From Pseudoramibacter sp. (GTDB taxonomy: Bacteria; Bacillota; Clostridia; Eubacteriales; Eubacteriaceae), in contig NZ_JAKVLT010000001.1 in the NCBI RefSeq assembly GCF_022484225.1, forward strand, positions 1,240,001 to 1,304,000: DNA of 64,000 bases. Reading direction: 5' to 3'. Under the pieces are notes generated by a model. That model was not told the DNA's origin. It saw nothing but the letters and a program-made list of their open reading frames with translations, and made no database searches. The position numbers and the translations under genes are program-made. This document shows positions 50,358-63,879 of the stretch, in pieces. Numbering within the stretch: the first letter of the stretch is position 1; every line of letters begins with the position of its first letter.

Positions 50358-51107
50358 ATGTTAAAAATTGCCATTTACGGAAAAGGCGGTATTGGAAAAT
50401 CAACCATTACCAGTAATTTGGCAGCCGCTTTTGCTTACCGCGGTAAAAAAGTCATCCAGATCGGCTGTGATCCGAAGGCAGATTCGACGGTGAATCTGCT
50501 GCACAATCATCCGGTCAAACCGGTGATGAGCCTGCTCCGCGAGGGCGAGGAGCCGGAAAGTCTGGAAGCGCTTTCCAAAACAGGCTACGGCGGGGTGCTG
50601 TGCATCGAGACGGGTGGACCGACGCCGGGTCTGGGCTGTGCCGGGAGAGGTATTATTGCGACGTTTCAGCTTTTGGAAGATCTGGAATTGGTTGAAACCG
50701 TTCAGCCCGATGTGATTTTGTACGACGTGTTGGGAGATGTGGTGTGCGGCGGCTTTGCAGCGCCGATTCGGGAAGGCTACGCAGAGAAAGTTTTGATCGT
50801 TACCTCAGGCGAAAAAATGGCCTTGTACGCGGCGAACAATATTAACACAGCGGTGCATAATTTTGAAGACCGGGGATACGCTTCGGTGGGCGGGCTGATC
50901 TTAAACCGCCGCCATGTGCCAGATGAAGAGGAAAAAGTGAAAAAATTCGCCGCTGACTGCCATCTGCCCATCTTGGCGGATTTTCCAAGAAGCGACGCCA
51001 TTAATCATTTTGAAGATCTTGGACAGACGGTGATTGAAGGGAATCCTGATTTGGAAATCTCTCAAAAATTCATCGCCCTTTCAAAGCGTTTAGAGGCGGC
51101 ACAATGA
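50358..51107 (+). CDS. NifH-like ATPase reductase, copy 1
   Basis: This 249-residue protein belongs to the nitrogenase Fe-protein superfamily, whose members hydrolyse ATP to pass electrons to a partner. It has the P-loop GKGGIGKST at 8-16, switch region GCDPKADST, Cys94 in GLGCAGRG and Cys130 in VLGDVVCGGF, the two ligands per subunit of the bridging [4Fe-4S] cluster, and Arg97. It is about 40 residues shorter than NifH. It overlaps the NifD-like gene by ATGA. AAAAGGAGAG precedes the ATG. The partner should be the D1/K1 pair. Confidence 0.92.
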   Translation: MLKIAIYGKGGIGKSTITSNLAAAFAYRGKKVIQIGCDPKADSTVNLLHNHPVKPVMSLLREGEEPESLEALSKTGYGGVLCIETGGPTPGLGCAGRGIIATFQLLEDLELVETVQPDVILYDVLGDVVCGGFAAPIREGYAEKVLIVTSGEKMALYAANNINTAVHNFEDRGYASVGGLILNRRHVPDEEEKVKKFAADCHLPILADFPRSDAINHFEDLGQTVIEGNPDLEISQKFIALSKRLEAAQ

Positions 51108-52435
51108 AAATAGGTCAAGCCGTATCTGAAATACTGGCTGAGGGTCAGGACGCCCTGCAGTCTCAAATTGCCGAAACGCGGAATTTAATTTACTCTTCAC
51201 CGGCAACTTTGGCATACAACTCACCTGGAGCTGAAGGCTACGGCGTCAAGCGCGCAGGTCTTTCTATTCCCGGTTCTGTGATGCTCATCGTCTCTCCGGG
51301 ATGCTGCGGGCGCAACACTTCAGAACTTTCTGAACGCCCGGAATACCGCCAGCGTTTCTTTTATTTAACCATGGACGAGACGGATTTAATTACAGGACGG
51401 CATTTAACCAAGATTCCCGAAGCCGTAGAGGAGATGATCGCTTTTCTTCCCGAAAAGCCCTCTGTGATCATGATCTGCATCACCTGTGTGGATGCACTTT
51501 TGGGAACAGATATGGACCGGGTGTGTCGGAAAGCCGAAGCGGCCGCCGGGGTTCCGGTGCGGCCCTGCTACATGTACGCCCTGACCCGGGAAGGGCGCAA
51601 GCCGCCGATGGTGCATGTGAGGCAGTCCCTTTACGATCTCCTCGAAAAACGCCAGAGAAAGGTTCACAACGCCAACATCCTCGGCTTTTTCAACGGCGTG
51701 GATCAGGACAGCGAATTGTACAAACTCCTCAAATCCGTCGGCGTATCCCAAATTCAGACGCTGAAAGACTGTGAGACGCCCGAAGATTTTTATGCCATGG
51801 CGGAAGCCAATTTTAATCTGGTGCTTTATCTCGAAGCGCTGCCGGCTGCGGAGGATCTGTACAAGCGGCTGAACATTCCCTTTATTCAGATGAATCAGCT
51901 CTATCAGACCGATAAAATTGCAGCGCAGTATGAAGCCCTTGGCAGAGCCCTCGGTGTCAATTTTGATTTTGAAGCTGATCAGAAGCAGGCCGAAGCCGTA
52001 TTTTCCCATTTAAAAGACACTGCATCCGGCTGGCAGTTCGCGGTGGGGGAAGTGGCGGACGCGAATCCCTTCGAGCTTGCCCTCGCACTTCTGCGGGAGG
52101 GACTTCAGGTGAAGACCATTTATGGCACCGTCGTTTCAGAATACTGGCCGTGGCTTACGAAAATCGCGGCGCTGGATCCTGAAGTCCGGATTATGGATAA
52201 CACGGCGCCGGAAATGATGGCCTACCGTCCGGACACGTCAGTGCCAACGGTGGCGATCGGCGCAGACGCCGTGTATTATTACCGCGATGTGCCCCGAACC
52301 GCGAAAGTGGCCTGGCGCAATTCCAGGCAGCCCTTTGGATTTGAAGGGGTGAAAAAATTCGTTCAGGCCATCGAAGAAGCCATTGTGTCTGTGAATTTAA
52401 AAAAAGGAAAAGGAGGAGAAGATGAAGGGATTTAG
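51104..52435 (+). CDS. nitrogenase component 1-like subunit (NifD-like), copy 1
   Basis: The 443-residue product has the nitrogenase component-1 fold pattern. SPGCCGRN (Cys67/68) lies where NifD has its Cys88-type ligand. ICITCVDALLGTD has Cys128 six residues before Gly, as NifD Cys154 does. Cys155 is extra. In NLVLYLEAL, Tyr242 occupies the place of the FeMo-cofactor ligand Cys275, and a Cys62-type ligand is not seen. The active-site cluster and substrate are therefore unlike nitrogenase. Cys223 (KDCETPEDF) has a counterpart in copy 2. Confidence 0.85.
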   Translation: MKIGQAVSEILAEGQDALQSQIAETRNLIYSSPATLAYNSPGAEGYGVKRAGLSIPGSVMLIVSPGCCGRNTSELSERPEYRQRFFYLTMDETDLITGRHLTKIPEAVEEMIAFLPEKPSVIMICITCVDALLGTDMDRVCRKAEAAAGVPVRPCYMYALTREGRKPPMVHVRQSLYDLLEKRQRKVHNANILGFFNGVDQDSELYKLLKSVGVSQIQTLKDCETPEDFYAMAEANFNLVLYLEALPAAEDLYKRLNIPFIQMNQLYQTDKIAAQYEALGRALGVNFDFEADQKQAEAVFSHLKDTASGWQFAVGEVADANPFELALALLREGLQVKTIYGTVVSEYWPWLTKIAALDPEVRIMDNTAPEMMAYRPDTSVPTVAIGADAVYYYRDVPRTAKVAWRNSRQPFGFEGVKKFVQAIEEAIVSVNLKKGKGGEDEGI

Positions 52436-62813: not shown

Positions 62814-63879
62814 AAGGCGCATCGCGCGGCTGGCACAGACAGGGGATCTTCCCAGAGCAGATTTAAAAGCCCTGATAGGGACTTTGACAGAAAATGAGGC
62901 ACAAACCCTTTACGCCTGTGCGCGGAAAGTGCGGGAGCGTGTATACGGCAAGGCGGTCTATCTCCGGGGGCTCATTGAATTTACCAATTTCTGCAAAAAC
63001 AACTGCTATTACTGCGGCATCCGCCGGGACAACCGAAAAATCGAACGCTACCGCCTTGACGAAGCGACGATTCTGGACTGCTGTGACCGGGGATATGATC
63101 TGGACTTCAGAACCTTTGTGCTTCAGGGCGGCGAGGATCTTGCTTATTCAGATGAAGAGATTTGCAGCCTGGTCCGAAAGATCAAAGCGCGCCATCCGGA
63201 CTGTGCGGTGACCCTTTCCATTGGAGAAAAGCCGGAGGCCAGCTACCGCGCTTATTTTGAGGCGGGCGCCGACCGCTATCTGCTGCGGCACGAAACGGCG
63301 AATCTCAGCCACTATAGGAAGCTGCATCCTCCGGAACTGTCAGGCTGGAACCGTCAGAACTGTCTGAAAACGTTAAAGGCTATCGGCTACCAGGTGGGCG
63401 CTGGGATGATGATCGGCTCTCCCGGCCAGACCCTCGACGATCTCGTCGACGATTTGCGGTTCATGCAGACGCTTCAGCCGGAAATGATCGGAATCGGCCC
63501 TTTTATTCCCCAGAAAGACACGCCCTTTGGCAGTGAGAAAGCCGGAACCCTCACAGATACGCTGCATCTTTTGGCGATCATCCGCTTGATGTTTCCCCAC
63601 GTGCTGCTCCCTGCGACAACGGCCCTGGGCACCATTGACCCTTTGGGCAGGGAAAAAGGCCTTCTGGCCGGCGCCAACGTGGTGATGCCCAATCTTTCGC
63701 CGACGGCCGTCCGGGGCAAGTATCTGCTCTACGACGGCAAGATCTGCACAGGGGACGAGGCCGCGGAATGCCGGCGGTGCATGGCGCTGCGCGTCGAAAA
63801 GACGGGCTATCATGTCGTGGTGGACCGCGGCGACTACAAAGGAACAGAAGACCAGAGAAAAGAGGCTTTGCGATCATGA
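62797..63879 (+). CDS. hydE: [FeFe] hydrogenase maturation radical SAM enzyme HydE
   Basis: HydE builds the dithiomethylamine-bearing precursor of the H-cluster. The 360-residue product has the radical SAM CxxxCxxC at Cys66, Cys70 and Cys73 (FCKNNCYYCG), LQGGEDLAYSD and GMMIGSPGQTLDDL. Near the C-terminus Cys317, Cys325 and Cys328 form the optional second cluster site. AGAGG lies before the ATG, which overlaps hydF. hydG is not seen here. Confidence 0.96.
   Translation: MATGNERRIARLAQTGDLPRADLKALIGTLTENEAQTLYACARKVRERVYGKAVYLRGLIEFTNFCKNNCYYCGIRRDNRKIERYRLDEATILDCCDRGYDLDFRTFVLQGGEDLAYSDEEICSLVRKIKARHPDCAVTLSIGEKPEASYRAYFEAGADRYLLRHETANLSHYRKLHPPELSGWNRQNCLKTLKAIGYQVGAGMMIGSPGQTLDDLVDDLRFMQTLQPEMIGIGPFIPQKDTPFGSEKAGTLTDTLHLLAIIRLMFPHVLLPATTALGTIDPLGREKGLLAGANVVMPNLSPTAVRGKYLLYDGKICTGDEAAECRRCMALRVEKTGYHVVVDRGDYKGTEDQRKEALRS

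What the first reader, a model, noticed from the sequence alone, without database searches (positions are those of the whole stretch)
50358..63879. Two nitrogenase-like HDK cassettes sandwich hypFCDE and lead into hydFE
Sequence shows an uninterrupted, mostly overlapping same-strand run: H1-D1-K1-hypF-hypC-hypD-hypE-TM1266-H2-D2-K2-hydF-hydE. Known nitrogenase-like families (BchLNB, BchXYZ, CfbCD, MarHDK) have other partners. I know of no described system with two such reductases embedded in hydrogenase maturation genes. A role in metallocofactor or hydrogenase assembly, or a reductase that uses a Hyp-type Fe(CN)2CO unit, is inference.
Basis: partly seen in the sequence, partly recalled or inferred. 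Interest (0 to 1): 0.95.

Follow-up and report, generated by a model that had tools for sequence, protein, structure and literature searches.

The report
HydG-free route to hydrogenase cofactor
A bacterial operon joins two nitrogenase-like reductases to the cyanide-making Hyp proteins and to two iron-hydrogenase assembly proteins, in a genome that has iron hydrogenases but no detectable HydG, the enzyme that normally makes their CO and cyanide, so it likely builds that active site by a different route.

Summary
In detail: H1-D1-K1-hypF-C-D-E-TM1266-H2-D2-K2-hydF-hydE is one tight + strand run. The decisive new fact is what is missing. The genome (one contig, 1.97 Mb, given as complete) has two [FeFe] hydrogenases, HydE and HydF, but no detectable HydG and no [NiFe] hydrogenase. 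A D1 scan of public genomes gave 431 confirmed relatives; of the 80 returned, 61 loci are long enough and all 61 have hypFCDE behind D1. HydG passes its cut-off in 0 of 50 such genomes, of which 49 have an [FeFe] hydrogenase and 44 no [NiFe] match. In 215 genomes of the window's class, 7 of 7 D1 genomes have HydE and lack HydG, against 5 of 139 other HydE genomes. One family holds exceptions: 3 of 13 D1 genomes there keep HydG. D/K reach no established family's cut-off and lack FeMo-cofactor ligands. Best reading: a HydG-independent pathway to the H-cluster, in which Hyp proteins would supply Fe-bound cyanide and the two reductases the CO (perhaps from CO2) or its low-potential electrons. HydG replacement is inferred from co-occurrence; the chemistry is untested. 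A 2012 paper noted the gene neighbourhood in one sentence and guessed metallocluster assembly, without the HydG link.

The parts
50358..51107 (+). H1: NifH-like ATP-dependent iron protein of the first reductase
   Evidence: PF00142 287 bits; NCBIfam nifH 295 of 394, CfbC 288 of 402, so neither cut-off reached; Cys94 and Cys130 in all 79 aligned
51104..52435 (+). D1: nitrogenase component 1-like subunit (D) of reductase 1
   Evidence: PF00148 104 bits; AlphaFold2 model pLDDT 77, component 1 fold in PDB; Cys88 and Cys154 equivalents of NifD kept, FeMo-cofactor ligands absent
52422..53459 (+). K1: nitrogenase component 1-like subunit (K) of reductase 1
   Evidence: PF00148 55 bits; D1 and K1 read as one fused frame in 27 of 80 loci; Cys37 and Cys42 in all 48 aligned
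53452..55776 (+). hypF: carbamoyltransferase, first step of cyanide ligand synthesis
   Evidence: TIGR00143 755 bits, cut-off 466; N-terminal Cys pairs (111/114 to 183/186) in all 66 aligned
55803..56015 (+). hypC: Fe-carrying chaperone
   Evidence: TIGR00074 58 bits, cut-off 48; Cys2 in all 67 aligned
56012..57079 (+). hypD: Fe-S redox protein on which Fe-CN/CO is built in known systems
   Evidence: TIGR00075 353 bits, cut-off 193; Cys32, Cys60, Cys63 and six C-terminal Cys in all 65 aligned
57079..58092 (+). hypE: makes the thiocyanate CN donor on its C-terminal Cys
   Evidence: TIGR02124 413 bits, cut-off 252; C-terminal Cys337 in all 62 aligned
58112..58372 (+). TM1266-family putative regulator of the iron-only hydrogenase system
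   Evidence: TIGR03959 109 bits, cut-off 61; PF21699
58369..59136 (+). H2: NifH-like iron protein of the second reductase
   Evidence: PF00142 285 bits; a second H gene is missing in part of the relatives
59130..60464 (+). D2: nitrogenase component 1-like subunit (D) of reductase 2
   Evidence: PF00148 46 bits, over cut-off; Cys63 and Cys123 in all 56 aligned; own clade in tree
60440..61636 (+). K2: nitrogenase component 1-like subunit (K) of reductase 2 (start may be 60461)
   Evidence: PF00148 92 bits; Cys44 in all 47 aligned; own clade
61620..62813 (+). hydF: GTPase scaffold and carrier of the H-cluster precursor
   Evidence: TIGR03918 541 bits, cut-off 326
62797..63879 (+). hydE: radical SAM maturase that processes the Fe(CO)2(CN) synthon
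   Evidence: TIGR03956 553 bits, cut-off 255; in a 21-row tree it does not separate from HydE of HydG-bearing genomes

Best explanation
[quoted passage not shown] Shown: the gene order and its conservation; both hydrogenases, HydE and HydF present and HydG and [NiFe] hydrogenase undetected in this genome; the same pattern in most relatives tested; intact Hyp motifs; component 1 proteins without the FeMo-cofactor ligands. Inferred: that the operon replaces HydG (about 0.8 likely); that Hyp supplies the cyanide of the H-cluster (about 0.65); that reductase 1 or 2 makes CO from CO2 (about 0.35). One division of labour fits the layout: H1D1K1, next to hypFCDE, would drive CO2-to-CO reduction at HypCD-bound iron, and H2D2K2, next to hydFE, would convert the HypCD product into the Fe(CO)2(CN) unit that HydE accepts.
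For: Own genome: two PF02906 hydrogenases, the only HydG-profile hit is HydE itself at 53 bits against a 312 cut-off, no PF00374. Class sample of 215 genomes: HydE over cut-off in 146, HydG in 137; the 7 strong D1 genomes all have HydE and all lack HydG, while 5 of the other 139 HydE genomes lack it (table, Fisher p 3e-9, not corrected for kinship). Within family f37 the alternatives sit in one genus: D1 in G046, G108, G125, G158; HydG in G069, G187. 50 genomes of D1 loci: HydG over cut-off in 0 of 50, [FeFe] hydrogenase in 49 of 50, [NiFe] match in 6 of 50. Family f35, 178 genomes: 10 of 13 D1 genomes lack HydG, 11 of 165 others do. hypFCDE follow D1 in 61 of 61 loci. HypE C-terminal Cys and HypC Cys2 invariant. 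HydE rows of D1-bearing or HydG-less genomes are intermixed with HydE of HydG genomes, as expected if both routes meet at one intermediate. Two of the 5 other HydE+HydG- genomes (G177, G057) have a sister D2K2 set in one run with hydE. Literature: IR signs of CO2 on HypC and a proposed reduction of Fe-CO2 to Fe-CO on HypD (PMC4161419, passages); nitrogenase Fe proteins reduce CO2 to CO (PMC9571451, passages); HydF made with HydE but no HydG gives about 1% activation, doubled by free CO or CN (as told in PMC9431212, passages). The same paper could not find HydG by motif in 5 of 8 clostridial acetogens although HydE, HydF and HypC, D, E, F were found in all eight: a published puzzle this pathway could explain, not tested here.
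Against: No experiment. Three of 13 D1 genomes of family f35 also carry HydG over cut-off (G337, G342, G397). Known HypCD makes Fe(CN)2CO, two cyanides to one CO, whereas the HydG product has one cyanide and two CO, so Hyp alone gives the wrong ratio; the one Fe(I)-(CO)2 species reported on HypCD was thought by its authors to be a possible contamination (PMC4161419). Three HydE genomes lack both HydG and strong D1 (G053, G114, G127). G177 and G057 show no hyp gene in the stretches read and carry an ABC importer instead, so Hyp is not always part of a HydG-less set. CO2 reduction by these reductases rests on analogy with Fe proteins only. Completeness of the 50 locus genomes was not given, and HydE was not searched in them. 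PMC9431212 also offers an atypical HydG as an explanation for its missing HydG.
Confidence: 0.62

Rival explanations
1. The operon matures a [NiFe] hydrogenase by the ordinary Hyp route, with the nitrogenase-like proteins as reductase helpers; hydF and hydE are neighbours by convenience.
For: HypF, C, D, E are canonical and over their cut-offs; 6 of 50 D1 genomes have a short PF00374 match in frames of 361-396 aa, the size of group 4 large subunits (the size comparison is recalled).
Against: No PF00374 match in the own genome and none in 44 of 50 D1 genomes, while 49 of 50 have [FeFe] hydrogenase. HypA and HypB were not searched for.
Confidence: 0.04
2. HydG was simply lost; HydE and HydF work weakly with stray CO and cyanide, or an unrecognised HydG- or ThiH-like lyase replaces HydG, and the Hyp/nitrogenase-like genes do something else.
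For: HydF made with HydE alone gives about 1% activation (told in PMC9431212), and that paper proposes an atypical HydG in acetogens; 18 of 50 D1 genomes have a 169-206 bit match to the HydG profile below its cut-off, ThiH-like by score.
Against: The own genome and 32 of 50 have no such second match. HydG absence goes with D1 in three families and, in one genus, the two alternate, and hydE or hydF lies in 29 of 80 D1 loci.
Confidence: 0.12
3. The reductases make the dithiomethylamine bridge, by reducing Hyp-made cyanide or thiocyanate to an aminomethyl unit, rather than CO.
For: Nitrogenases reduce cyanide (recalled); the HydE/HydF neighbourhood.
Against: HydG is what is missing, and HydG makes CO and CN, not the bridge; a known bridge route goes via aminomethyl-lipoyl H-protein (PMC11736057, start of abstract in the listings). 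CO would still lack a source.
Confidence: 0.07
4. Hyp plus the two reductases make a separate Fe-CN-CO cofactor for another enzyme, and HydE/HydF are shared.
For: Two reductase sets are more than a single ligand step obviously needs; importer-linked relatives of D/K in G113, G210, G088, G059 and Treponema show no hydrogenase gene in the stretches read.
Against: No candidate target gene was seen beside the operon in the window or the 20 kb downstream of it (only some of those ORFs were scanned), and the HydG anticorrelation would be unexplained.
Confidence: 0.1
5. The D/K proteins fix nitrogen.
For: Nitrogenase component 1 fold and NifH-like partners.
Against: Cys275 and His442 equivalents absent in D1 and D2; Nif equivalog cut-offs far from met.
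Confidence: 0.01

Closest known systems
Canonical HydEFG maturation of [FeFe] hydrogenase
   Same: HydE, HydF, TM1266 regulator and the hydrogenase targets are the same kinds
   Different: HydG, source of CO and CN from tyrosine, is not detected in the own genome and in most relatives tested; hypFCDE and two reductases are added
HypABCDEF maturation of [NiFe] hydrogenase
   Same: HypF, C, D, E with intact Cys
   Different: no [NiFe] hydrogenase detected in the genome; product presumably handed to HydE/HydF instead
NifHEN-like proteins linked to hydrogenase maturation genes (Dos Santos et al. 2012, PMC3464626)
   Same: two linked H-D-K sets, same Cys pattern, Firmicutes; the neighbourhood was noted there and cluster assembly guessed
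   Different: that paper names neither HydG absence nor the H-cluster in the parts read, and those parts give no co-occurrence test and no mechanism
ABC-importer-linked nitrogenase-like H-D-K operons
   Same: closest relatives of D1K1 and D2K2 in the tree
   Different: followed by binding protein, FecCD permease and ATPase genes in G113, G088, G059 and Treponema pTS1, by the binding protein only in G210; no hyd or hyp gene in those stretches
DPOR (BchLNB), COR (BchXYZ), CfbCD, MarHDK
   Same: ATP-driven NifH-like donor and component 1 fold
   Different: curated Bch and Cfb cut-offs not met; Bch proteins fall outside the D1/D2 and K1/K2 clades; Mar and Cfb rows were not in the tree

Membership tests
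Canonical HydEFG H-cluster maturation | HydE and HydF present | tested here: met
   553 and 541 bits, over cut-offs
Canonical HydEFG H-cluster maturation | HydG tyrosine lyase present | tested here: not met
   own genome best 53 bits, which is HydE, cut-off 312
Canonical HydEFG H-cluster maturation | [FeFe] hydrogenase target present | tested here: met
   two PF02906 genes
[NiFe] hydrogenase maturation (Hyp) | HypCDEF present with catalytic Cys | tested here: met
[NiFe] hydrogenase maturation (Hyp) | [NiFe] large subunit to mature | tested here: not met
   PF00374 0 matches in own genome
[NiFe] hydrogenase maturation (Hyp) | HypA and HypB nickel insertion proteins | not tested
   the 12 genome searches went to PF00148, PF02906, HydG, HydE, D1 and PF00374
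Nitrogenase (NifDK/VnfDK/AnfDK) | FeMo-cofactor ligands Cys275 and His442 of the alpha chain | tested here: not met
   absent in D1 and D2 in alignment with two NifD
Nitrogenase and NifEN | curated equivalog scores | tested here: not met
   best nifE 58 of 505 bits, N2-ase-Ialpha 50 of 486, nifH 295 of 394
DPOR/COR | curated equivalog scores and place in tree | tested here: not met
   bchL 200 of 345, BchB 42 of 490 bits; BchN/B/Y/Z outside the clades (long branches)
CfbCD | curated scores for CfbC and CfbD | tested here: not met
   CfbC 288-290 of 402; CfbD (TIGR03282) 25-27 of 268 bits
MarHDK | sequence membership | tested here: inconclusive
   18-31 bits to solved Mar chains 9fmg/9d9u; no curated model and no Mar rows in the tree
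Group IV nitrogenase-like, Dos Santos clade with two Cys in D and one in K | Cys88/Cys154 equivalents in D, one Cys in K, Cys62 absent | tested here: met
   against the description in PMC3464626
Functional claim: HydG-independent H-cluster synthesis | loss of hydrogenase activity on deletion | not testable with these tools
   bench work

The most novel reading that the evidence does not exclude
A second natural pathway to the H-cluster exists, spread through probably hundreds of bacterial species, many of gut and rumen: cyanide comes from carbamoyl phosphate by HypEF, CO from CO2 by ATP-driven nitrogenase-like reductases acting at HypCD iron, and the resulting Fe(CO)2(CN) unit enters at HydE, so [FeFe] and [NiFe] cofactor assembly and nitrogenase chemistry meet in one machine. 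The HydE-linked sets with an importer in place of hyp genes would be relics or variants of how it arose.
Probability: 0.35. Interest if true: 0.96.

Novelty: new variant of a known kind. Interest (0 to 1): 0.9.

Why it matters
In the accepted scheme HydG is the source of the CO and cyanide of the H-cluster (PMC13360658, passages). Bacteria that have the hydrogenase, HydE and HydF but not HydG, and carry Hyp and nitrogenase-like genes instead, would mean a second evolutionary solution, with carriers in Blautia, Roseburia, Coprococcus, Anaerobutyricum, Eubacterium ramulus and Olsenella. It would give a function to part of an orphan group of nitrogenase-like proteins, would bear on the debated source of CO in Hyp-type maturation (PMC4161419), could explain why HydG was not found in several clostridial acetogens (PMC9431212), and would offer a tyrosine-free way to make hydrogenases in the laboratory.

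Tried and rejected
N2 fixation: FeMo-cofactor ligands absent. [NiFe] target: absent and rare in relatives. Hydrogenase genes next to the operon: the two hydrogenases lie elsewhere, and hydE is followed by a NUDIX gene, an RNA 2'-phosphotransferase fusion and riboflavin genes. A special HydE for this pathway: the HydE tree (21 rows, quick method) shows no separate clade; three of its 15 rows labelled as HydG-less come from D1 loci (L062, L084, L085) whose genomes were not tested for HydG. Inter-subunit geometry from the fused D1-K1 model (pLDDT 81, pTM 0.77): both halves match component 1 folds, but against the fused NifEN 9i0g_A the rmsd over 665 residues is 25 A, so the pairing is not confirmed by the model. 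A CfbD or MarDK placement: no such sequences were at hand. The Fe-protein tree (quick) has very long Bch branches and was not leaned on beyond H1 and H2 forming separate groups. Papers on bacteria lacking hydG: the phrase search gave two papers, by title and abstract start not on natural absence; one search gave four, of which PMC9431212 does discuss clostridial acetogens without identified HydG (passages). The statement that the link between this operon and HydG loss is not in print rests, all in open-licence PMC papers only. Pfam and PHROGs scans of the rest of the window covered 20 ORFs and gave nothing that bears on the operon.
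Full report
Observation. Family searches name H1 and H2 as NifH-like, D1, K1, D2 and K2 as component 1 proteins, and HypF, HypC, HypD, HypE, TM1266, HydF and HydE over their curated cut-offs. The genome is one contig of 1,965,548 bases given as 100% complete and 2.68% contaminated, and these four D/K genes are its only PF00148 matches.

What is missing. The genome encodes two [FeFe] hydrogenases. A search with the HydG family finds only the HydE of this operon, at 53 bits against a cut-off of 312. No [NiFe] hydrogenase large subunit is found. 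So a genome with [FeFe] hydrogenase, HydE and HydF lacks a detectable copy of the enzyme that makes CO and cyanide for it, and has instead the Hyp proteins that make iron-bound cyanide, without the hydrogenase they usually serve. PMC13360658 (passages) restates the accepted scheme: HydG makes an Fe(CO)2(CN) synthon that passes to HydE.

Relatives. The nearest named relatives of D1 and D2 are from a MAG called Pseudoramibacter sp. (83 and 86% identity). A scan of one-genome-per-species records with a D1 alignment gave 431 confirmed relatives, of which 80 were returned: Lachnospiraceae including Blautia, Coprococcus comes, Roseburia faecis, Eubacterium ramulus and Anaerobutyricum hallii, plus Oscillospiraceae, Pseudoramibacter alactolyticus, Olsenella and other Coriobacteriia. 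The gene order is conserved. Of the 80 loci, 61 have at least 6.5 kb behind D1 and all 61 hold hypF, hypC, hypD and hypE; of 38 with at least 9 kb, 35 hold D2 and 33 K2; hydE or hydF lies in 29 of the 80. A part of the loci has only one H gene. D1 and K1 read as one fused frame in 27 of 80, so they are partners.

Co-occurrence, three samples. (1) 215 genomes of the window's class at 95% completeness or more: HydE over cut-off in 146, HydG in 137, D1 strong (over 600 bits) in 7. All 7 have HydE and lack HydG; 5 of the other 139 HydE genomes lack HydG (Fisher p 3e-9, which ignores kinship). Three genomes have HydG over cut-off without HydE. The seven lie in three families (f1, f35, f37), each of which also has HydG genomes without D1; in f37 both kinds occur in one genus. 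(2) 50 of the 80 locus genomes (all loci of at least 17 kb and L011): HydG over cut-off in 0 of 50, [FeFe] hydrogenase in 49 of 50, the miss being a 1.1-Mb genome, PF00374 in 6 of 50, each matching only the first 70 positions. HydE was not searched in these 50, and their completeness was not given. (3) Family f35, 178 genomes at 95% or more: D1 strong in 13, HydG over cut-off in 157. Ten of 13 D1 genomes lack HydG, 11 of 165 others do (p 1e-8, kinship ignored). Three D1 genomes (G337, G342, G397) carry HydG as well. Two genomes, G097 and G165, are in both the first and the third sample.

The rest of the HydG-less. Of the 5 HydE+HydG- genomes without strong D1, G177 and G057 carry D2K2 sisters in one run with hydE and a binding protein/FecCD/ATPase importer, and no hyp gene in the stretches read. 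G053, G114 and G127 are unexplained.

Phylogeny and ligands. In a maximum-likelihood tree of 74 D/K proteins, D1, D2, K1 and K2 form separate supported clades. Their nearest relatives are H-D-K sets followed by importer genes: complete importers in G113, G088 and G059 and in a Treponema plasmid, only the binding protein in the 12 kb of G210. An importer-linked Sporomusa set falls further out. G177 and G057 are sisters to D2 and K2. NifDKEN and BchNBYZ fall outside, though the Bch branches are long. Against NifD, D1 and D2 keep the Cys88 and Cys154 equivalents, K1 and K2 one Cys, while Cys62, Cys275 and His442 are gone. This fits a [4Fe-4S] cluster held by three Cys, as in DPOR (inference), and speaks against a FeMo-cofactor-type site. 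The D1 model matches component 1 folds at 12-19% identity with no favourite; both halves of a fused D1-K1 model do so.

Hyp and HydE quality. Cys2 of HypC, key Cys of HypD and the C-terminal Cys of HypE are invariant among aligned relatives, so cyanide synthesis is expected to work. HydE of D1-bearing or HydG-less genomes (15 rows, three of them from genomes not tested for HydG) does not form its own clade against 6 rows from HydG genomes. This suggests, as inference, that HydE sees the same substrate in both settings, so that what changed is the step before it.

Mechanism. HypF and HypE would make cyanide from carbamoyl phosphate and put it on iron held by HypCD. The H-cluster precursor needs two CO and one CN per iron, while HypCD is known for two CN and one CO, so extra chemistry is required; two low-potential ATP-driven reductases are what the operon offers. 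IR signs of CO2 on HypC were reported, and reduction of Fe-CO2 to Fe-CO on HypD was proposed; an Fe(I)-(CO)2 species was also seen, which its authors thought might be a contamination (PMC4161419, passages). Nitrogenase Fe proteins reduce CO2 to CO, better with ATP (PMC9571451, passages). The step is therefore chemically reasonable but untested here. HydF made with HydE but no HydG gives about 1% activity, doubled by free CO or CN (told in PMC9431212, passages), which shows that HydE/HydF can use ligands of other origin.

Prior art. Dos Santos et al. 2012 (PMC3464626; section 11 read in full, passages elsewhere) noted two linked NifHEN-like copies in Coprococcus catus and Dorea longicatena, an association with hydrogenase maturation proteins in C. 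catus and other Firmicutes, and a possible role in assembling the active-site metallocluster. PMC9431212 (passages) found HydE, HydF and HypC, D, E, F in all eight clostridial acetogens studied but HydG by motif in only three, and HypA and HypB in three; it left this open, proposing an atypical HydG or unknown ways of ligand incorporation. Those genomes were not tested here. My searches found no paper that ties the nitrogenase-like genes to loss of HydG; subscription papers and preprints are not covered. A 2025 study of gut H2 (PMC12578642; section 7 in full, passages of section 6) has no HydE, HydG or maturase in a word search of its main text; a figure legend lists D. longicatena and Olsenella umbonata among tested isolates, but I could not read their values.

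Verdict. Real, conserved, and with a specific and testable meaning: probable HydG-independent assembly of the H-cluster. Confidence is about 0.8 that it replaces HydG, 0.62 for the full statement, 0.35 for CO from CO2.

Noticed in passing
L131:7430-16445 (G177) and L132 (G057): hydE, H-D-K and a binding protein/FecCD/ATPase importer in one run (with hydF-TM1266 in G177), no hyp gene in the stretch, HydG not over cut-off: a second HydG-less arrangement, possibly ancestral.
   Followed up: partly
L143 (Treponema saccharophilum plasmid pTS1), 12000-18296: A plasmid-borne H-D-K-importer cassette of the same nitrogenase-like group; its K is 38% identical to K2 over 60% of K2.
   Followed up: partly
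L144 (Treponema saccharophilum plasmid pTS2), 2786-13025: Two nitrogenase-like D/K pairs flanking an ABC transporter, with NifX-like proteins at both ends; function unknown.
   Followed up: no
G337, G342, G397: Three genomes of family f35 carry both strong D1 and HydG; in G397 the D1 match and the second, D2-like match lie on different contigs.
   Followed up: no
G053, G114, G127: HydE over cut-off but neither HydG nor strong D1: unexplained, perhaps assembly gaps or a third arrangement.
   Followed up: no
G223, G244, G246, G251, G262, G263: Short PF00374 matches (first 70 positions) in frames of 361-396 aa in six D1 genomes, perhaps Ech-type large subunits.
   Followed up: no
L008:906-1994, downstream of hydE and a NUDIX gene: A fusion of a LigT/2'-5' RNA ligase-like domain with an RNA 2'-phosphotransferase (KptA/Tpt1) domain, followed by riboflavin synthesis genes.
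   Followed up: no
L133-L136: Four further H-D-K sets of unknown substrate in the class, nearest relatives of D1K1 and D2K2; three with a complete importer, G210 (L134) with its binding protein only.
   Followed up: partly
PMC9431212 (passages): Clostridial acetogens reported to have HydE, HydF and HypCDEF but no HydG by motif, and several without HypA/HypB: candidates for this pathway.
   Followed up: no
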